A stretch of 64,000 bases of DNA from contig NZ_OZ034994.1 of the NCBI RefSeq assembly GCF_964031045.1, positions 682,001-746,000 of the forward strand, given 5' to 3'. Under the pieces are notes generated by a model, which was given only the letters and a program-made list of their open reading frames with translations, was not told the origin of the DNA and made no database searches. This document shows, one piece after another, positions 1-37,844 of the stretch; within the stretch, counting starts at the first letter, position 1, and each line of letters starts with the position of its first letter. This DNA comes from Spiroplasma endosymbiont of Aspidapion aeneum. GTDB lineage: Bacteria > Bacillota_I > Bacilli_A > Mycoplasmatales > Mycoplasmataceae. Position numbers and translations under genes: made by a program.

Positions 1-318
1 AAATAAGATATCATTTGTTGACCCAGTCAGATAAAAAACAATATCTAATTTATCATTTTCAAATAAATGATTTATAACATAGATAAGGTTTAATGTTTTG
101 CCAGACTGCACATCACCATAAATTAAAAAATTTTTATACTTATCATAGTTATTTATAATATGAACTCAATTAGCATTAAACAATGATAAGCTTTCATTCA
201 TCTCTTTTTCATCTTTTAGACCAAGAGTTTCCTTCAAGATATTATTAAAACGTTCACTAGAATCTATAGGTTCTTCTTTTTCTTGTTTTCCATATACCTT
301 AATCTTTATTATTTTCAT
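1..318 (-). CDS. Z1-domain protein, N-terminal part (cut by window edge)
   Basis: Only the first 106 codons are inside the window. After about 65 residues comes YGDVQSGKTLN, a Walker A variant with the VQSGKT form typical of the Z1 superfamily-II helicase-like domain. It is followed by a hydrophobic strand and FYLTGST, matching the LTG element that follows the P-loop in that family. The start ATG has GGAGAA just upstream and lies inside the last 20 bases of the MORC ATPase gene, so translation is probably coupled. In known MORC-Z1 modules Z1 proteins accompany a DNA methylase and a GHKL ATPase, as here. The family call rests on one motif pair and on context. The nuclease or other C-terminal domain is outside the window. 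Confidence 0.62.
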
Positions 319-2005
319 TTTCAAATAATTCTCCTACTTTATTTGCCCCACTAAAGGGATCGGTTTCTGGATTTTCAATTCATTCTATATATTGAATTGC
401 AACTAATAATGTAATAGGAATTAATGCTTCTATATATCATTCTTTACTATTATTTATTTTTTTAAAAAAGGGATGTGATGTATAAACTGTTATATCAATT
501 ATTTTCTCACTCTTTCTCCTTTCGGTATTAAAAATATCAAAAGGCACTAATGAATTGTCATCTTTTATATAAATATCTCATCCACCATATTTTGAATATT
601 TTATATTTACTCTCTTATTTTCATTATCAATTCCTAAAATTTTAATATCATCGTCTGGAAATTTTTGCTTAAATACAATCATAAGGTCATCACGGTCTTT
701 ATCTTTTATTTCTGGTGTTTTTGTTTTTATAAAATCGCGAGTTTTCATAATAAAAGTATTAAAAGCAATTCACACAGAATATATCTCCTTATCCAAGTCC
801 GCTTTAACATTATCAGACATTGTAAATGTTGATTTATCTGTTTTTGTAAGTAACCCTATTTGGGCAAGATTGCACTCTCCTGCAAACCTATTTTCAGTTG
901 AACCTGTCTCCATTTCTGAATTTTTTCACCCCATATATGGTTTTGTTTCTAAATCTTTATAACCACAATGATTAATCGCCCTTTTACCCTCAAACAATCT
1001 TATCCCTCTATATTGAGCATCTTTTTGGGGTAACATTCAAAAATTAAAATCAAGAGGCTTACCATCAATATTTACAGATATACCAAAATCAAAAACTATT
1101 TGATTTTCATCAAAAGATTTCTTCAACAAATCTTTTATTTTATCAAAAACTATCCTTGATGTTGAAGAATTTATTTTATCTCCCTCTTTCAAAATTCTTT
1201 TTTTAAAATTTTCATTAGCTTCATTTACAAAATTATCATAATTTTGCCTATTTAATTCTGACTTACTAAATATACCTACAACGTGCTGTTTAGGTTCGAT
1301 TGGAACCTCAAATTTTCTATAAATTTCACTTTCATTATGCAAATATCTAAAATTAATCTCAATGTTTTCTTCTATAAGATATTTTATATAGCGAAAACTT
1401 AGTGTATCAATTATTTGTTTAATAGTTTGTTGAGATAATATTTTATCATTATGAATTTTTTCAATAAGAATTGTTGTTCCTCTTTTAGATGAACCACTAT
1501 GATTTGGATAAATTGTAATTGGATTTTCCAAAGTCTCTTGTTCTGATGATTTAATTTTGACAATAAGCGGTTCATCTGTTCCATTATAAGTAGAAACTGT
1601 AAGATCTAAACCAAAAAAGAAAGCACATTGCTTTAGACCTCTTCCATGAACATTCATTAAAGATTTTTTTAGAGATATATTTTTGTTATTTACCCTATTT
1701 AGTTTAATTGCTTCTATAAGTTCAGATTCATTCATACCAAAGGCGTTATCGGTTACTTTTATAGATGCGTTAGAAACTACTTTATAATCATGGATTGTTT
1801 CTATATCGCCATTAAAATCAATTTCGATATCAATTTTAAGCTTTTCAGGTCACTCGTCTCCATAATGATTTTCGAATGAGGAAATTGAATTGTCAATTAA
1901 TTCTGCTAACATTAAAAAATGTTTTGTATTTACATTTCTTAATGAAGTGTAATCCTTATATGTTCTTGGGTCATAATGTATGTTAAATTCATCATTTTTA
2001 TTCAT
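299..2005 (-). CDS. MORC-type GHKL ATPase of a restriction-modification-like system
   Basis: 568 aa with several UGA Trp codons. The N-terminus shows the GHKL ATP-binding signature: LAELIDNSISSF (N-box, about residues 31-42), VTDNAFGM (the D-x-G-x-G equivalent, residues about 84-91) and NVHGRGLKQCAFFFG (lid and G3 box). A second half with YRGIRLFEGKRAI resembles the S5-like transducer of MORC and MutL proteins. GHKL ATPases of this group dimerise on ATP and are known in bacteria from methylase plus Z1 operons. The gene overlaps the methyltransferase upstream by 8 bp and the Z1 gene downstream by 20 bp, a tightly coupled operon. Nothing looks truncated. The role in restriction or DNA surveillance is inferred from context. 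Confidence 0.75.
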
Positions 2006-3104
2006 TTATTATATCAACCTCTATTTGTCTTTCTTTTAATATCGCTTTTGTTATATCAAATATATCTTCGTAATTAAAATTCTCACTTCTGCCCTTATTT
2101 TCTTTGATTTTCTCAGATTTTTGTATTAGAATACAATCTATGCCCAATTCATTTGATATTATAGCAGAAACACCAGAACCAGCATAGGGATCAAGAACTA
2201 CCTTATGTTCTAGAATTGGTAACTCAAATAAGAATTTAATTAATTTATTACTTTTACGATAAGCAAAAAGAGAATCTGTTTCAGTTTTAGTTGAATTTTC
2301 ACCTACAAATCTTTTATCTAATAAGTCAATGCTTGAAATTGGTTGACTTCTATCTTCATATACTATTTTATAATTAGATTTACATTCACTATCAATTTTA
2401 CAATTTGTATAAGTTTTTTTATAAACTCGGTTATTTTTAAATACAATAAAGTCATTTTCTATGGCAAAATTGATTTTATTTGCTGACCATAGCCAACATC
2501 AATCTTTTAAAAAATGTCTTTCTTTTCTATCTCTTCAACTCTGAATATCCCCAGATGGATAATATGTAACTCCTTTATAATCAATTCCAAAGTCACTTGA
2601 TGCACTATACAAAAAATCCTTGTAATCAAGCCTGCGCAAATGATAAAAGCCTCTCTTTTCGAAATGCTCATCTTTTAATTTATATACCGACTTATCAATT
2701 GCCTTTTTTTGAAAGGCAATATTCCCAGTAACATATACTAAAACAAAATCATTAATTTTTGATATTCTGTTTGTAGTTTTCGCAGTTGAACATGTCCTTC
2801 TTGGCATAACAGCAACACAACTATTTATTCCAAAAACATTATCCATAACAACCTTTGCATTTCCCAGTTCCTCAATACCTATAGATACATAAATAACAGA
2901 TTTATATTGAATAATTTTTTTTATTTCAATTACCCTCTTTTCAAAACCTTCTTTTCATTCGTTAGGATTGTTAAAAACATCGTGATATATTAATTTTGAG
3001 TTTTTGGTATTATATGGAGGGTCAAGATACACTATATTTGGTTTCTCTTTAATTGTGGGGATAATATCTAGATTATCACCTTTGTAAAGCCTAATCACAA
3101 TCAT
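1998..3104 (-). CDS. Site-specific DNA methyltransferase, beta class (adenine-N6 or cytosine-N4)
   Basis: 368 aa. The catalytic motif LDPPYNT sits near the N-terminus (about residue 28) and the S-adenosylmethionine-binding motif DPYAGSG near the C-terminus (about residue 305). This motif order (IV before I) defines beta-class amino-methyltransferases. The middle, rich in basic and aromatic residues with several UGA Trp codons, would be the target recognition region. The gene starts inside the end of the upstream 292 aa gene and ends inside the start of the MORC ATPase gene. It probably marks host DNA so that the MORC/Z1 proteins act on unmarked DNA. The recognition sequence cannot be read from the protein. 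Confidence 0.85.
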
Positions 3105-3969
3105 AACCTTTTTCTAATACAACTTTTTTATTAATAAATATTATATTAGAATCTTTCTTAACTGTAAAAAATCTTTGCTTTTCATCATTATTTAAATTTG
3201 AATATTGGTGAAAAATTTTTAAAATAGTAGACATTAGGTCATCAACAACAACATCTATTTTTAATTTTCTTTTAAAAATAACTGCAAGTCTTTCAGATAA
3301 TGTTTCAATTTCTGTGCCATCTTCTCAGTATTTAAATATAAACCTTATTAATTCATCGTTATCATCTATTATTGTTTGCTTATTATATTTTTCTTTTTGA
3401 GACAACAAAAATTCGTTAATATAAATCGGACTATATCCCAATTCCTTAGCAACTTTATTTGCATCTTTATATTTATCTATTAAATTATTAATTAACATAT
3501 ACAATTTTCCCTTAAAATCTCCATCATTATAAATATCATTAACTATATTACATATTCTCTTAAAGTTGAGCTTGTGATTATCTGCAATAGATATAAGATA
3601 TAATATTTCATTTTTTTGTTGATTAAAGGATTCTTTATTAAAACATGTAAGGTAAAATCTAATTTTTAATAACATTATTAGTTCATCATTTAAAAGGTTA
3701 TCTCAATCTTTGTAATTCAATACTCAATTGCCTATTTCCTTTATATTTATCTTAACAAAAAATTTAATATAGTACAAATATTCCAAATCTTCGCTAATAT
3801 TTCATCTGGATAATACTCACTTTTTTGTAGATTCAAGACCATTTAAATAAATATGCATATCTACCGATTTTTTAGTTGCTTTGCAATTTAAAAAATAATT
3901 GTTATTAGCCAATTTTTTTATATTTTCAATTTTATATCTAGGCAAATAATTTTGTGCATCTATATCCAT
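3091..3969 (-). CDS. Unknown protein, first gene of the MORC-Z1 methylase operon
   Basis: 292 aa, no family recognised. The N-terminal third is mixed and Trp-rich (three UGA codons). The middle is helical, and DANKVAKELGYSPIYINEF (about residues 210-228) looks like a helix-turn-helix. The C-terminus holds a lysine-rich helical stretch. It overlaps the methyltransferase start by 14 bp and is the promoter-proximal gene, so it is part of the system. It could be a regulator (controller protein), a specificity subunit or the missing nuclease, but no nuclease motif is evident. No Shine-Dalgarno sequence precedes the ATG. A -10 box ends 8 bases before it, which suggests a leaderless message. Confidence 0.7.
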
Positions 3970-11994: not shown

Positions 11995-12303
11995 TTATAT
12001 TTTTTTAATATCTTTGATAATTCCGTCAACTTCTATTTGAAGTAACTCACAAAATTTATTTTTTATAGATTCATTAATATCTTTTTTTTCGGTGTTAATA
12101 ACATATTCTACATTAATTGATTCATCAGTTATATCATCTTTAACAGATTCTATAAAATTCAATAATCTTGAAAAAAAATCTTCAAAGTTTTTTTCAGAAG
12201 GATCTAATAATTTAAGATTAAATAACTTATCTCCTAAATTAATATCGATATATTCATCGTTTTCACTTAAACTTACTTTAATCCTTTTGTTTGATTGTTT
12301 CAT
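11995..12303 (-). CDS. Small partner of the PHP-ATPase
   Basis: 102 aa, acidic, no recognised domain. The start at 12303 has AGAGGTGA at the right distance and lies 26 bp inside the end of the PHP-ATPase gene, so the two are translationally coupled. The C-terminus is mainly helical and rich in Lys, Glu and Ile. Its stop is next to the IS3 remnant, but the frame looks complete. It may be an accessory or control subunit of the ATPase. Confidence 0.6.
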   Translation of the reverse strand: MKQSNKRIKVSLSENDEYIDINLGDKLFNLKLLDPSEKNFEDFFSRLLNFIESVKDDITDESINVEYVINTEKKDINESIKNKFCELLQIEVDGIIKDIKKI

Positions 12304-14449
12304 ATAAATCACCTCTTTCATGAAATGCATCTTTTCCACCCTCAAGAATTTCAACTGCTATTTCCTTTCATTTATACTTTGTTTGTGTTCCATCATTTTT
12401 TTGAAAATATTCTAAAAAGGGACTTCCTATATATGTTTCATTTTCAGAAGATTCTTCGCCTAATTCTCTATATATAACTGAATATGGTCATGTTCTAACT
12501 GCGATATTTGCATTATGTGTTGTTAAAACTATTACCTTATTATTTTTTGCAAGTGAATTAATTCTTGTAACAATTTCATCATTTGTAAAATAATTATCTA
12601 GTGATTTATCAGGTTCATCAAGGAAATAAAATTCTCGTTCTGTATCTAAATAGTTTGTCAACGTCAGCAATACTTCCTCACCAGTTGATGGATTATGGTC
12701 TTTTCCATTTTGATCAATAATTTTAGATCGCTTTCATATTAAATTATCAAATCTTAATTGATCTATTTTACTATCTTGCATTAATTTTTTAAGTTCCCTC
12801 ATTTTTAAATAAAAGAGTTTATCTTTTCAATTATCAGCAATTTCACCAAGAAATTTAAGTGCTGTTTTTGAAAATTTTTCAGCTTTTATTTGTCATTTAG
12901 CCTCATCTGGGTTTGGGTTAATACAAAATTCATTGAATATTGATAATTGCAAATTAGGTCTTATAGAACCTATTTTAATTACGTTGGACTTAATTTTATT
13001 CAAACCTATTAATTTTAAAATTTTTTCAGAGTTACTTTTTAAAAATAAATAATTATGACATAGATCTAAACTATCTGGCATAGTGGGGTTCGATGTATTA
13101 TCCTCAATTATTTTTTTTATACTTGATGAAATGGATTTTATAAAACGTGGACCCCTATATTCTTTACAAAGATTTTTTAGTTCATTTATTAATTTTTTTA
13201 TTATTCTAAATATGTAGGATTTTGTAGTTAAAAAATCAGGAAATTCTTTATCTTTTTCATAGTCTTCAATAATTTTAAGCGATTTTTTCAAAGCTTCTAT
13301 TTTGGTTAAATATCGGTCAAGTTCTGCATTATATTCTATAGGGGGTGTAGTTTCAATTTTATTTATAGTAAATATTTGTCATTTATGATATTTATCACTT
13401 TTTTTGTGTTCTTTGTAGTAATTTATTATTTTCTTGTAATTATTAAAAATATTAACAGTTTGTGGGATATCCTCTCCTTCAATCAATTTATTAATATCAT
13501 CAAAATAATGAGTAATATCTTCTTCTATTTTTAATTTATTATTTAGTGAATCTATCATTTTTATATAATTAGATTTTGAGTCTTCTCATAATTTAATTAT
13601 CTCACCATTATCCTTAATAATCTTATCTTTAATGGCTTTTAATAATTCAGTTTTCCCACTTCCTCTTGGACCAATGATAACATTAACATCCTTATAAATT
13701 GGAATCATATAGTTGTTTGCCCACCCATATGGTTTTATATCAAAATCACCATAATGTTTTTCTCTAATATATTTAGTCATAAATGTAGGGTCTTTTTTAA
13801 AAAAATGAATTAAATTTTCAAATGTATCAATCCTATTACGAATATCTGGTAATTTTGCATAATTTGGTTTATTTGTATCAAGGTCGTCGGAACCATTAAT
13901 AGCAGGAACTCCTTGAATTGCTAAAATTTGAGTAGATGTAAGATTACTTGTTTCATAAAAATTAATAGATTTATGATCACTTAGTAATTCATATTCATGT
14001 TCTGCTAAATCAAATTTTCCTTTTTGTTTATTAGGCATGAGGCATATTTTGACAAAATCTTTAAACTTTTTCTTAAAATCAGTAATTTTTAATCTATATT
14101 CTTCAGGAACAACATTATTTATTAGTGATGATAATAAAATGTTTCATTCCTCTTTTTTTTCATTACTAACAATAACATTTAAATTATGTATTTTATCCTT
14201 CTCATCAAGAATGTCTAATTCAACACCAGGTAATAATAAAATATTTTTTTCTTTTAATTTTTTCTCTAAAAAATTAAATTGATTTAGATCAAAATAATTA
14301 TGATTTGTTATTGCCAATATCATAACATTTGCCTCTTCTAGATCTGATACAAATTTTTCAACCTCTTTAGGATTAGAAATATCTAAATTTCTTGTATCTT
14401 TTTCACCTTGCTTAATTTTTAATGTATGCTTATGTAAATTTATTTTCAT
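12278..14449 (-). CDS. PHP-domain plus SMC/ABC-like ATPase protein (possible phage-defence protein)
   Basis: 723 aa. The N-terminus has the PHP metal-site pattern LHKHT, LAITNHN and LLPGVELD, with Asn where most members have Asp in TDH. At about residue 245 comes Walker A GPRGSGKTE. A long charged helical region follows, then STGEEVLL (ABC signature-like), FYFLDEPDKSLDN (Walker B) and VIVLTTHNAN (H-loop). PHP plus SMC-type ATPase in one chain is known from single-gene defence systems such as Ppl and from proteins annotated as TrlF-like. Which of these is closest cannot be told here. AGGGAG precedes the ATG. The gene is flanked by an IS remnant and decayed DNA, typical of acquired defence genes. 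Confidence 0.75.
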
Positions 14450-32343: not shown

Positions 32344-33612
32344 GTGAAAAAACTAAAGAATTTATCAAAAAATATTTTTAAAACAAATGAAAAGAATGTT
32401 TACATAAAAATTCCATTTATTGTTATTTTTTTTATTGGTTTAATTGGATTTATAACAACTTCTTTTTTTGATTTAGATAATAAATGAGTTGCTTATGGAT
32501 GGGATTTGCAAAAAAGTCATTTTATAAAATCTTTTTGTTATTTTTATTTTAATATTGGTACAAATCAATTAACTGTTCTTTTACCTATCTGTGCAATTGT
32601 CTTGTTTGAATCATTTATGGCAAAAATTAAAAGACAAAAGCATTGAAGTGTTTATGGATTTTATATATTTTTGGCAATTTTTTGAATAGTATATAATTGA
32701 TATATCATTTATTCAACCTATAATGCAGATGATGGATGAGGTTTTGGAATTTGTGTTTCAGTATTGCTTGATGGAAAATCAGCATTATATGGAATAATTG
32801 CTATCACTGTGATAAATACGATAATTTTTGTTGCGGTTGCCTATCTTATCCATTTTAAAATTGCTAAATTTCCAACATTTATTGAGGATAAATATTGACA
32901 TCGTTCCCTATTTCTTATCATCTATGTATTAATAATGTACTTTTTTATCATTATTATTAAACAATCAACTGGAAGACCAGAATATATATTTACAAACTTC
33001 GAAGATATTGTTGGAAAAATAACTTGGGGGGATGTAGATAAACTGACCGGAAGAAGAAAGGCAATAGATATAGACCTTACACCTGCTATTCGAAAAATCA
33101 ATGGAATTACAGATGCAGATATGCCAAAACTTAAAGCAAATATTTTAAGAGAAATAAACAACAATAATTGAGCACCATCAAATTATTTTCAATGATGACA
33201 AATTAATGGTGATTGGGTATCAAATTTAAAACATTGAGCAATTTTTAATTGATTTACAGATTCATCAACTAAGAATATGCCAACAGGTTGATATGTAATA
33301 AACTTTCCAAGTGGACATATGAATGCCACATTTACAACATTTGGATATGGATATATTTTTCTTTATGAAAATAAAAATATTAAAAAGAAATGAAAAATTT
33401 CCTTTATGATTTTATGATTAGTGCATTTATTTGGAATGTTATTAACACTGACAATTTCAACACTACATTATCCAACCGATTGTTTCTTCACAATGACCTT
33501 GTGCCCATTGATAATATATCCATCCTTAAAAGCGACAGATTTTTGTGTTAAATTGGCTTTAAAAATAGTTGATCATAAAAAAAATAAAGTGGTTCTTAAG
33601 ATTGAAAAATAA
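32344..33612 (+). CDS. PAP2-family membrane phosphatase
   Basis: 422 aa with many UGA Trp codons. At least six membrane helices. The PAP2 motifs appear as KQSTGRP (domain 1), FPSGHMNATF (PSGH, domain 2) and STLHYPTDCFF (domain 3, His and Asp). A roughly 110-residue loop between motif 1 and PSGH is longer than usual. The family removes phosphate from lipid phosphates or pyrophosphates at the membrane. GTG 32344 is the only in-frame start that keeps the N-terminal basic segment and helix. Confidence 0.83.
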
Positions 33613-33873: not shown

Positions 33874-34587
33874 TTAGGTTTTAAATATGCTATTAGAATC
33901 AAATTCAAATATTTCCTTAAATTTATTTTCAATTTTTAATAAATCATTTTTATCAACATCAAATTCTTCTTTTATCATTCCGTCTTTTAAAAAACATACC
34001 CGATTACAAACTGCTGCAACTTCTTGAAAAATATGAGAGCAAATTAAAATTGTTTTATTCATTTTTTTATTTAAGTTCAATAACAGTTCATTAAACCTTA
34101 ATTGCATCAATGGGTCTAACCCAGATGTTGGTTCATCTAAAATAATATATTCAGGGTCATGAATTAACGCTGCGATAATTGCTATTTTTTGTTTGTTTCC
34201 TTTTGATAGTTTTTTAATCTTTACATCAAGATCAACTTCAAAGAATTTTACTAAATTATCAAAAAAGTCTTTATTTATAAAGTTTTTTGTTTGTTCAACA
34301 AACTTAAAATAACCTCGCCCGGTCATTTTTTCATAAATTGCAATTTCACCAGAAACATATCCAACTTTATCCATAATAATTTTTGAATTATCTCAAGTAT
34401 TAACACCATCAATCATTACTTCACCACTATCAGGTTTTATAAATCCCATTATCATTCTAATCAACGTTGTTTTTCCAGCACCATTTGGGCCAATTATCCC
34501 ATATATTTGACCTTTTTTAATATTTATATTGATATTAAAAGCGCCTTTTTTATGTCCATAATCTTTTGTAATATCTTTTATAACCAT
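33874..34587 (-). CDS. ABC transporter ATP-binding protein of the modified-peptide locus
   Basis: 237 aa. Walker A GPNGAGKTT, signature LSKGNKQK, Walker B YIILDEPTSGLDP, H-loop ICSHIFQE: ABC-2 type exporter ATPase. It is the last gene of the operon peptide - ThiF-like enzyme - permease - ATPase and starts 18 bases after the permease stop, with GGGG before the ATG. Likely powers export of, or immunity to, the modified peptide. Confidence 0.9.
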
Positions 34588-34605
34588 TTTTAAAAACCCC
34601 TTTTT

Positions 34606-35529
34606 CTAAATATTAAAATCAATTTTTTTAAATTTTTTTAAATCAATAAAAAAGACAAAACAAGCAAGACAAGACCCAAATATAATAAATAATCACCCTT
34701 GTAAATAGTTATGTTTAGGATTAACTTTATTTATCATATAAATATTTTTTTCAGGATCTGGTATTCAAATATTTGTTTTCTTTGTATCAAATTGATTTCC
34801 AGCCAAGTTAAATATATCAATATAGTAGAACATTTTTGAAACAAAACCATCAACACTGTTATATTTAATAACATTATCTGCAATGAAAACTCCAATCATG
34901 GCAAGTGTTATTGCAAAAAATATAAAATTTACAGTCTTAATATATTCAAATAAATATAAATACACTAGCGCATATAAAGATGTTAATAATAATACAAATA
35001 TAATAAATGAAACTAATTGTGTTAAATAATTAAGATAATCTGTTGAATCAATTGCTTCATTTTTAAAGATAAATATAAAAGATGTTAATAAAATTGGTGA
35101 CAAAATTATTATTATTTCAATATATATACTTAATAATTTACTAAGAAATAATTTCTGTCTTGAAATTGGTGTTGTTAGTCATATTGTAATTTTTTTTGAA
35201 TAGGCTTCTAATAAAAAATGAATTGTAAACGCTAACATAAAATAAAATAAAACATATACAATAATTGGTCCAGATAATAAAAAATAAATCATATTATTAA
35301 TACCAATGTAATGTTGAGGATTACCACCTATCGACCCATTCTTATGATAATAAATATCTAAATAATACATTTTAGAAAAAACACTATCATCCTTATCTGT
35401 AGCATAAACAAATGATGATACTTGTCCAGCAAAAGCTACTGACATTATAAAAAAAACTAATAAAATTATCCAATCTTTTTTTAAAGACTTATTTAATATC
35501 ACAAATGTCTTGTTTTTTAACTTAAACAT
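34606..35529 (-). CDS. ABC-2 type permease of the modified-peptide locus
   Basis: 307 aa, six membrane segments. The first extracytoplasmic loop (about residues 40-85) is large and aromatic. The coupling loop KKITIWLTTPISRQKLFLSKL is the typical ABC-2 pattern of basic residues, Thr-Pro-hydroxyl and R-x-K. It lies 58 bases downstream of the ThiF-like gene and next to its ATPase. Substrate inferred from context. Confidence 0.8.
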
Positions 35530-35587
35530 CTTACCCCCTTATAAATTAATCCTATTAATATTAATTTCAAAATAATCCAATAATTTG

Positions 35588-36709
35588 TTAATTGTCATTA
35601 TTTTCAATATTACCCATTAATTTAAAAAAACTTAATAAATTATTATCCGTTATGTTATTATCACCACAAGTAGGACAATTTTTTTGTTTGTATCATTCTG
35701 TCACTTTTGTAAAACTAAGTGTATCAAAATCTAATCTTGTAATTCAATTATTAAATTTACCATCTTGTAATAAAATAATTCATTTTTGAATTATAATAGA
35801 ACACAATAAGCTTATAGTATATGATGTTGCTGAGGTTTGAGGCACAAAGTTTGAATTTTTTAAAGCTAAAATAAAGTTATATCACTTTTCATCAACTGTT
35901 CCAACAAATAGGCAATCAACGCACCCTGATTTAGCGGGGTCCATAAAAAAATATCTGCCATTATTTTTTTGGCAAAAGGAGAACAAAACTGGCTTATTGG
36001 CAATATAGCAGGCCTTGTTCACAATTCTTTGCATTTTATAAGGAGGGTCATCTGCGCAAGAAAAAACTCAATCCACATCATTTACATACTTTTGAATATC
36101 ACTTACACTCTCAATATTACATTTTAATTTTCTGATTCTTCCTTTAGAATTTTTATTTAAAAAATAATCTTCAGCAACATCAATTTTGTCACGTGAGACT
36201 TCCTTTTCACCTCACAAAACTTGTCTAGATATATTTGATAAATCCACTTTGTCAAAATCTATAACAGTTATATTCTCAACTCCCAATGACACCAAATGTG
36301 ATAGTATTGTAAATCCACCACCACCAACTCCAATAATTAAAACTGAAATTTTATTTAATTTATTTTGAAAATCAATACCATTAATTTTATCAGAATTAAA
36401 GTAAAAAATATTTGATCGATACCTTTCAAATCATTTTTCATTAGTAAACTTTTTATCTAAAACTAATAAAAATCCTTTATCCTTTAATTTATTGATCCCA
36501 TCAATAAAAAAATGTATTTCTGCATTTTTAATCCCAATATTATTAGCAATTTTATTAGCATCATTATAGCCATCAAATAGTGTTAAGGCTTTTCTTCAAT
36601 ACCCATTTTCATCATCCAGATAATAAATGTTGTTATCATCTGTACCAATTCTAAGCACTTTCTCATTAATCATAAAATAATTTATAGATTTATTCCATAG
36701 AGGATACAT
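35588..36709 (-). CDS. E1-like ThiF/MccB-family adenylyltransferase with N-terminal peptide-recognition-like domain
   Basis: 373 aa. Residues 1-105 look like a PqqD-type RiPP recognition element: a beta-hairpin start, LTLFDGYNDANKIANNIG, then helices and KLKDKGFLLV. From about 125 comes the E1 nucleotide site IIGVGGGGFTILSHL, IDFDKVDLSNISRQ (Asp, Asn and Arg-Gln of ATP and Mg binding), DDPPYKMQRIVNKAC, and two zinc CxxC pairs (GCVDC and NCPTCGD). This is the architecture of MccB, which adenylates the microcin C peptide. MoeB or ThiF for cofactor sulfur is less likely because no such pathway gene is nearby and a peptide gene precedes it. Its ribosome binding site is weak; the peptide gene's is strong. 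Confidence 0.8.
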
Positions 36710-36840
36710 AACTTTACCGCTTCTTTACATTTTAATTATACTTATAAGAAATTACGTGATAATAAATTTATATCTTTTATATTTATAACATAAATTTTAT
36801 ATTATATCATTTTAAGGTTTTCAAATAAAAATTAGCAAAT

Positions 36841-36867
36841 AAAAACTGGATTTCTCCAATTTTTTTG
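36841..36867 (-). terminator. Hairpin attenuator between peptide and ThiF-like gene
   Basis: On the minus strand a stem AAAAATTGGA with TCCAGTTTTT closes on a GAAA tetraloop and runs into a U tract. It lies directly after the peptide stop codon, so most transcripts would stop there and a minority continue to the enzyme and transporter. The same arrangement is known in the microcin C operon. Confidence 0.75.
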
Positions 36868-36875
36868 ATTTTATA

Positions 36876-36944
36876 TTAAATAAAATATCAATTTCCATCT
36901 AAAATAGATGATTCATTTACTTCAACTAAAACTAATTCTTTCAT
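36876..36944 (-). CDS. Putative precursor peptide (22 aa) of a modified-peptide locus
   Basis: ATG 36944 follows a near-perfect AAGGAGGAT with an 8-base gap, far stronger than most sites in this window. The peptide begins MKELVLVEV and ends SSILDGNWYFI when UGA is read as Trp. Codon 19 is UGA and follows a Gly-Asn pair, so a stop there would give an 18-mer ending in Asn, the residue MccB-type enzymes modify. A terminator-like hairpin and the ThiF-like gene follow. No other role for such a strongly signalled short frame is apparent, though a regulatory leader peptide is possible. Confidence 0.65.
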
Positions 36945-36965
36945 AGAAATATCCTCCTTAATAAA

Positions 36966-36981
36966 ATTATAAATCATTATA
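36966..36981 (-). promoter_or_regulatory. -10 boxes of the peptide operon
   Basis: Two TATAAT hexamers on the minus strand (boxes 36966-36971 and 36976-36981), 22-37 bases before the peptide ATG. Upstream, at 36995-37041, a 13 bp A/T inverted repeat may be a binding site. Confidence 0.45.
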
Positions 36982-37244: not shown

Positions 37245-37844
37245 ATGGCAAAAGTATTAGTATTAAAAGTAACAATGATTAATGATAAAGTTAGTTACTC
37301 AACAGCAATATTAAATAAATTTATAGAAGTATACAAAAATAAATATAAAAATGATGAAATCATTGAATTAGACTTAACTAATGAACCAATGGCACAAAAA
37401 GCATTAACAAGAGATAATATGGGAAACTTTTGAAATAAAGATGATTCTGAAAAATATATTGATCAGTTAAAATCTGTGGATAAATTAATCCTAGCTTCTC
37501 CGATGGTGAACTTTAATATCCCAGCAATACTTAAGAACTATATAGACCACGTATTTTTAGCAGATAAATTATTTTCATACAAATATTCAAAAAAAGGTGA
37601 TGCAATTGGACTTTTAGATAAACTAAAGGTTCAAATAATTACAACTCAAGGGGCACCCGTTGGTTGATATCCATTTTCAAGCCACACTGAATATTTAAGA
37701 GGTCTTTGAGAATTTGCAGGAGCAAAAATTAATCGTCCAATTGTTATATCTGGGACAAAAGTTGAACCATATTCAAAAATGGATATAAATGACTTTGTAA
37801 AAAGTGAATTAGATAATATTATGGAATCTTTGAAAGAATTTTAA
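37245..37844 (+). CDS. azoR: FMN-dependent NADH-azoreductase (AcpD family)
   Basis: 199 aa flavodoxin-like reductase. The N-terminal strand and phosphate loop ([15 protein letters not shown]), [25 protein letters not shown] and TTQGAPVGW (UGA Trp) follow AzoR order closely. These enzymes reduce quinones and azo compounds with NADH and FMN. AAGGAG lies 7 bases before the ATG. Followed after 16 bases by an unknown gene in the same transcript. Confidence 0.85.

What the first reader, a model, noticed from the sequence alone, without database searches (positions are those of the whole stretch)
33874..36981. Candidate microcin C-like modified-peptide locus in a spiroplasma
Seen: a 22-codon gene with an almost perfect ribosome binding site; a terminator-like hairpin after it; a 373 aa E1-like enzyme with both zinc CxxC pairs and an N-terminal region patterned like a RiPP recognition element; then an ABC-2 permease and ATPase. 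Established: MccB (ThiF family) adenylates the C-terminal Asn of the MccA peptide, and the mcc operon has a hairpin between mccA and mccB. Inference: this operon makes, exports and protects against a modified peptide. I know of no described system of this make-up in mollicutes, and no YcaO or other second enzyme is present.
Basis: partly seen in the sequence, partly recalled or inferred. Interest (0 to 1): 0.9.

Follow-up and report, generated by a model that had tools for sequence, protein, structure and literature searches.

The report
Trp-ring peptide operon in a spiroplasma
A tiny cell-wall-less bacterium carries a four-gene operon that very probably makes a small ring-shaped peptide by joining a tryptophan side chain to the peptide's end, a chemistry so far shown only for a Streptococcus pneumoniae enzyme; it is not a microcin C as first guessed.

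Summary
On the minus strand the window has a 22-codon gene with a perfect AGGAGG (the only one among 202 free short ORFs), a hairpin, a 373-aa RRE+ThiF enzyme, an ABC-2-like permease and an ATPase. The short gene is real: the one close orthologue (46% identical enzyme, another genus of the family) is preceded by a 24-codon frame sharing MKEL... and a C-terminal NWYF[IV]. 'Modified-peptide operon' is therefore right; 'microcin C-like' is not. The peptide does not end in Asn and no MccF is nearby. Its end, NWYFI, is letter for letter the core of IndA, whose enzyme IndF (S. pneumoniae, 2025) links the Trp indole nitrogen to the C-terminal Ile. A review calls this NWYFI group exclusive to lactobacilli/streptococci. 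Here the cyclising Trp is coded by TGA, and the IndP (M16) protease is absent from the genome. In sister genomes of the orthologue the same exporter gene stands behind a class III lanthipeptide synthetase instead, which supports a swappable peptide-modification cassette. True microcin C-like loci do occur in other mollicutes and, frameshifted, elsewhere in this genome. Best reading: a mollicute variant of the ind RiPP system; product and function untested.

The parts
36953..36959 (-). Shine-Dalgarno AAGGAGG of the precursor gene
   Evidence: sequence; unique among 202 free short ORFs of the window
36876..36944 (-). precursor peptide gene, 22 codons: MKELVLVEVNESSILDGNWYFI; cyclising Trp19 = TGA
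   Evidence: conserved MKEL...NWYF[IV] upstream of the orthologous enzyme in G012; C-terminus identical to IndA core NWYFI (PMC12150305)
36841..36864 (-). hairpin between precursor and enzyme, 10 bp with GAAA loop and a U-rich 3' side; probable attenuator/terminator
   Evidence: z -2.6; hairpins at the same place in 4 of 4 related mollicute loci tested (z -3.1 to -4.6)
35588..36709 (-). RRE-ThiF adenylating enzyme, 373 aa (IndF-like)
   Evidence: PF00899 131.6 bits; best PDB MccB E 5e-24, PaaA E 2e-12 over residues 15-189; no ThiF/MoeB equivalog cut-off reached
36395..36709 (-). N-terminal RRE (winged-helix peptide recognition) domain, about residues 1-105
   Evidence: profile search hits PaaA RRE E 1.5e-10 and, without Pantoea sequences, 4.8e-6
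34606..35529 (-). ABC-2-like permease, 307 aa; presumed exporter with the next gene
   Evidence: sub-threshold ABC2_membrane_2/5 hits; four paralogues elsewhere in the genome
33874..34587 (-). ABC transporter ATPase, 237 aa
   Evidence: PF00005 96 bits; lantibiotic-protection/DrrA-like ATPases among best sub-threshold NCBIfam hits

Best explanation
A minimal ind-type RiPP operon. The 22-aa precursor is translated from a strong ribosome binding site; the hairpin lets some transcripts stop after the precursor gene so that the peptide outnumbers the enzyme (inferred). The enzyme's RRE binds the MKEL...-type leader, its ThiF domain adenylates the C-terminal carboxylate of Ile22, and the indole nitrogen of Trp19 attacks it, giving a Trp-Tyr-Phe-Ile macrocycle (loss of one water) as shown in vitro for S. 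pneumoniae IndF. The ABC pair then exports the product, with or without leader removal by an unidentified protease. Shown here: gene content, conservation of the precursor end, enzyme class, absence of M16 protease. Inferred from the published IndA/IndF work: the bond. Unknown: the product's role (signal or antagonist).
For: Precursor ends in NWYFI, identical to the five-residue core whose indolylamide was solved by NMR (PMC12150305), and sits in front of an RRE-ThiF enzyme. In the only close orthologue (G012, 47% id) the upstream frame is otherwise diverged but keeps MKEL at the start and NWYF[V] at the end. Residues tested in IndF are present with the same spacing: Q167-K179-Y228 correspond to Q163-K175-Y224 (gaps 12 and 49 in both); Tyr224 is shared by the two NWYF enzymes but is Phe, Met, Pro or Ala in the other RRE-ThiF enzymes compared. 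The enzyme groups with G012 (100/100) and next with the WWIII (enterofaecin-type) enzyme of a Niallia plasmid (88/91), apart from mollicute MccB-like enzymes. Context: G012's exporter gene (530-aa ABC) stands at the same site, after the rRNA operon, behind a class III lanthipeptide synthetase and its precursor in G007/G008, alone in G010/G011; G006 shows the empty site. No ThiS/MoaD in the genome for a cofactor E1 to serve.
Against: No streptococcal IndF sequence could be obtained, so direct orthology to IndF is untested; at the expected offsets K256 is Arg252 and T298 falls on Ala294/Thr295. IndP (M16) is missing from the genome and from G012. The permease/ATPase belong to a paralogous family in this genome that is not linked to a recognised peptide gene in the one other neighbourhood read, and the exporter type differs between the two loci. 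Only two loci known, so conservation rests on one pair. No expression or product data.
Confidence: 0.78

Rival explanations
1. A RiPP operon whose enzyme makes a different C-terminal bond: an EnfB-like macrocyclic imide or C-terminal amide rather than the indolylamide.
For: The closest non-mollicute enzyme found is the WWIII (enterofaecin-type) one of Niallia; [quoted passage not shown]
Against: The peptide end is NWYFI as in IndA, not WWI[IV]I; Tyr224, required in IndF, is Phe in the WWIII enzyme. PMC12150305 notes that the enterofaecin structure still needs detailed NMR.
Confidence: 0.13
2. A microcin C-like peptide-nucleotide operon.
For: MccB is the best PDB match (E 5e-24); hairpin between peptide and enzyme as in mcc (PMC6495379); mcc-like loci exist in mollicutes.
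Against: C-terminal residue is Ile/Val in both loci, not Asn; no MccF; enzyme not in the clade of the Asn-peptide enzymes. Read with the wrong code (TGA as stop) the frame would seem to end in Asn, but code 4 applies: the enzyme itself needs 8 TGA=Trp.
Confidence: 0.04
3. A sulfur-carrier activating enzyme (ThiF/MoeB/HesA) with an unrelated short ORF upstream.
For: Belongs to the ThiF superfamily; hits ThiF/MoeB models.
Against: All equivalog scores far below cut-off; N-terminal RRE; no ThiS/MoaD family member in the genome; conserved precursor frame.
Confidence: 0.02

Closest known systems
ind cluster of Streptococcus pneumoniae (IndA/IndF/IndP + transporter; PMC12150305) and the 'NWYFI group' of streptococci (PMC12250964)
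   Same: precursor ending NWYFI; single RRE-ThiF enzyme; adjacent transporter; Q-K-Y active-site spacing
   Different: in a mollicute with code 4, Trp coded by TGA; shorter precursor (22 aa against a longer IndA with MIMI start and EDTTNWYFI core); no M16 protease IndP; ABC-2-like pair (here) or single-chain ABC exporter (G012); hairpin after the precursor (not mentioned for ind in the text read)
Enterofaecin type (EnfA/EnfB, WWIVI; PMC12250964)
   Same: short precursor with aromatic-hydrophobic end, RRE-ThiF activating the C-terminal carboxylate, ABC transporter genes; Niallia WWIII enzyme is the nearest outside relative found
   Different: WWI[IV]I end, proposed backbone imide; leader (V/I)RKA motif absent here
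Microcin C (MccA/MccB/MccF)
   Same: peptide + hairpin + RRE-ThiF enzyme layout
   Different: Asn-ended 7-residue peptide, N-P bond to a nucleotide, MccF-type immunity; none found here
Pantocin A (PaaP/PaaA)
   Same: RRE-ThiF; PaaA RRE is the best match of the N-terminus among solved structures
   Different: PaaA closes internal Glu residues; oxygenase partner; core in mid-peptide

Membership tests
ind (indolylamide RiPP, NWYFI group) | precursor with C-terminal NWYFI (Trp three residues before the terminal Ile) | tested here: met
   NWYFI in the window, NWYFV in the orthologous locus
ind (indolylamide RiPP, NWYFI group) | RRE fused to a ThiF-like enzyme, no YcaO | tested here: met
   no YcaO-type gene among the neighbours scanned
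ind (indolylamide RiPP, NWYFI group) | IndF residues Q167, K179, Y228, K256, T298 | tested here: inconclusive
   first three match with exact spacing (Q163, K175, Y224); K256 position is Arg252; T298 falls at Ala294/Thr295. IndF sequence itself not available
ind (indolylamide RiPP, NWYFI group) | M16 protease IndP for leader removal (accessory; the class is defined by the bond) | tested here: not met
   no PF00675 match at E<=1 in the genome or in G012, while 10 of 14 control genomes match
ind (indolylamide RiPP, NWYFI group) | Trp-N1 to Ile-carboxyl bond in the product | not testable with these tools
   needs co-expression, MS/MS and NMR
ind (indolylamide RiPP, NWYFI group) | enzyme clusters with streptococcal IndF | not testable with these tools
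   no streptococcal ind locus in the plasmid, phage or viral collections searched nor in the genome samples
microcin C | precursor ending in Asn | tested here: not met
   ends in Ile (window) and Val (G012)
microcin C | MccF-like or other immunity enzyme in the cluster | tested here: not met
   flanking genes are PAP2 phosphatase, ABC pair, flavodoxin-like
microcin C | enzyme groups with MccF-linked MccB-like enzymes | tested here: not met
   separate from the MccF-linked mollicute MccB-like set, 100/100 each
enterofaecin type | precursor ending WWI[IV]I with (V/I)RKA leader motif | tested here: not met
ThiF/MoeB sulfur-carrier E1 | equivalog model cut-off and a ThiS/MoaD partner | tested here: not met
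   114.6 of 275 bits for ThiF, 83.8 of 266 for MoeB; no PF02597 in the genome

The most novel reading that the evidence does not exclude
Mollicutes, with near-minimal genomes, keep an exchangeable slot for ribosomal peptide natural products: one exporter locus paired with alternative synthetases (ind-type ThiF, class III LanKC), with the indolylamide made from a TGA-coded Trp and released or exported without the M16 protease, possibly with its leader still attached.
Probability: 0.4. Interest if true: 0.75.

Novelty: new variant of a known kind. Interest (0 to 1): 0.6.

Why it matters
It would be the first indolylamide RiPP outside the lactobacilli/streptococci and a RiPP in wall-less bacteria with reduced genomes, a group for which I found no described RiPP of this make-up in the papers searched. 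The locus is as small as such a system can be (peptide, one enzyme, exporter), lacks the known leader protease, and codes the reacting Trp by a reassigned codon, so pipelines that use the standard code would read the precursor as ending in Asn and the enzyme as broken. It gives a simple test: one peptide, one enzyme, one predicted mass.

Tried and rejected
Microcin C reading: rejected on the peptide end, missing MccF and the tree. Cofactor E1: rejected on scores and absence of ThiS/MoaD. Class and phylum genome samples gave no further close relative. Other NWYF[VILM]-stop matches in the family: the eight fetched were checked, and apart from the two known precursors none was a ribosome-binding-site-led short gene of this kind; the rest, two in this genome included, were not inspected. 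Single-sequence structure prediction failed (pLDDT 38), so no fold search was made. The ABC pair's paralogues elsewhere in the genome show no recognised precursor or synthetase in the one neighbourhood read. The genome-contig scan returned only distant E1s.

Full report
What is there. The window is bases 682001-746000 of a single-contig 1.21 Mb genome that needs code 4. All the reported parts are on the minus strand: precursor ORF 36876-36944, hairpin 36841-36864, enzyme 35588-36709, permease 34606-35529 and ATPase 33874-34587, with gaps of 58 and 18 bases between the last three genes. The next gene beyond the ATPase (PAP2-like, 32344-33612) and the one beyond the precursor (flavodoxin-like, 37245-37844) are on the other strand, so the four genes form a closed unit.

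More than chance. Of 202 short ATG frames (7-60 codons) that lie outside larger ORFs in the window, only this one has a perfect AGGAGG in front. The hairpin folds better than all but 2 of 200 shuffles. Of 60 genomes of the family, one other (G012) has a close relative of the enzyme (E 1e-98, 46%), and its upstream 24-codon frame, also with a strong ribosome binding site and followed by a hairpin, reads MKELKLNKIIKTAKEDVVVNWYFV against MKELVLVEVNESSILDGNWYFI. The two peptides agree at both ends and hardly in the middle, as a leader start and a core would.

Enzyme. Pfam ThiF 131.6 bits; best solved relatives MccB (E 5e-24) and PaaA (E 2e-12, residues 15-189, so including the N-terminal region). 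ThiF and MoeB equivalog models are missed by a wide margin, and the genome has no ThiS/MoaD-type carrier protein. A profile of the N-terminal 105 residues made from the two mollicute enzymes and Niallia, Macrococcus and Sporosarcina relatives finds the RRE of PaaA at E 4.8e-6 across its length. Both CxxC pairs are present.

Which RiPP. A text search for NWYFI led to PMC12150305: IndF of S. pneumoniae, an RRE-ThiF enzyme, joins the indole nitrogen of Trp6 to the carboxyl of Ile9 in the core EDTTNWYFI (MS/MS, NMR, W6A control). [quoted passage not shown] The window peptide ends in exactly these five residues. Three of the residues tested in IndF (Q167, K179, Y228) have counterparts at the same spacing (Q163, K175, Y224 here); the Tyr is specific to the two NWYF enzymes in my set. 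K256 and T298 cannot be placed without the IndF sequence. As a check of my mass arithmetic, the published cyclic core m/z 585.7591 is reproduced (585.7587).

Relatives. Enzymes of the same layout stand behind different peptide ends: WWIII on a Niallia plasmid, GVPG on a Macrococcus plasmid, LALVG and LAAVG in Salmonella and Pantoea plasmids, VEPR on a Sporosarcina plasmid where, as here, an ABC ATPase and an ABC-2 permease accompany the enzyme. In the tree the window and G012 enzymes form a 100/100 pair next to the WWIII enzyme (88/91), apart from the MccF-linked enzymes of mollicutes.

A cassette slot. In G012 the peptide, enzyme and a single-chain ABC exporter lie between the rRNA operon and a hydrolase gene. 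In five genomes of the same genus the site differs: G006 has rRNA directly followed by the hydrolase; G010 and G011 have the exporter gene alone (78-80% DNA identity); G007 and G008 have the exporter behind a 763-aa class III lanthipeptide synthetase (NF038151 267 bits, below its curated cut-off; RamC_N 105.7 bits and LANC_like 48.8 bits, both above theirs) and a 34-codon precursor MTINEILDLQINTEKETPVFASEAIIQITIICKA. An exporter shared by two unrelated RiPP synthetases is independent support that the ThiF enzyme is a peptide-modifying enzyme.

What differs from ind. No M16 protease (IndP) in this genome or G012, so leader removal is by something else or does not occur. The ABC-2-like permease has four paralogues in the genome; the set near 886000 has no peptide gene beside it that I could recognise. 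So export and especially protection by the window's ABC pair are inferred from operon position only. The cyclising Trp is coded by TGA in both precursors; 8 of 9 Trp codons of the enzyme are TGA, so the genes are adapted to code 4.

Microcin C proper in mollicutes. The G002 peptidase matches MccF at E 2e-71 and its enzyme MccB at 7e-29. In three genomes of other families of the order, MccB and MccF domains are fused into one protein behind 11-12 residue Asn-ending peptides. I found no paper on these in the library searched; that library lacks most subscription journals.

Verdict. A RiPP operon (about 0.95), most likely of the ind type in chemistry (about 0.78), a variant because the protease is missing and the host and code are new. 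No experiment has been done on it; the function of the ind peptide was still open in the streptococcal paper too.

Noticed in passing
L221 2538-4466 (-), L222 4087-6078 (+), L224 3071-5059 (+): MccB and MccF domains fused in one protein (ThiF + Peptidase_S66) in three mollicute genomes (G202, G212, G208), each behind an 11-12 residue peptide ending in Asn (MPIEWSVINFN, MPISWFNLTLN, MIPSTWAVNVFN); in G202 the gene directly follows a class II (D/K/N) aminoacyl-tRNA synthetase that I read as AspRS, the target of microcin C.
   Followed up: partly
L016 5490-8762 (G000:C1 about 345489-348761): A microcin C-like locus elsewhere in the window's own genome: MDIIIGQMSN, hairpin, MccB-like gene broken by a frameshift, S66 (MccF-like) peptidase, with transposase fragments before it.
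   Followed up: partly
L207 1660-5736 and L208 1725-5803: Class III lanthipeptide-like synthetase with a 34-codon precursor containing the ILDLQ leader motif in two mollicute genomes, at the same site and with the same exporter as the G012 ind cassette.
   Followed up: partly
L225 3547-4565 (-): A split ThiF-like gene in G029 behind a peptide MIFNEEQVSEEIHRC with strong ribosome binding site and hairpin-like repeat: another peptide class ending in Cys, apparently decaying.
   Followed up: no
L031 1500-2655 (-): RRE-ThiF enzyme with precursor MRFGVKKLRVVKFACHVDQNC in a relative of the class (G369): a Cys-ended peptide reminiscent of GrcA thiolactones.
   Followed up: no
window 299-3969 (-): Three adjacent genes: HATPase_c_3 protein, type III-like DNA methyltransferase and an unknown protein; possible restriction or defence unit.
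   Followed up: no
window 11995-14449 (-): PHP plus AAA ATPase protein with a small partner; PADLOC candidate PDC-M49A, 101 bits.
   Followed up: no
L218 5858-8582 (-): One ATPase and two tandem permeases, close paralogues of the window's ABC pair, near 886000 in the same genome with no recognised peptide gene.
   Followed up: partly
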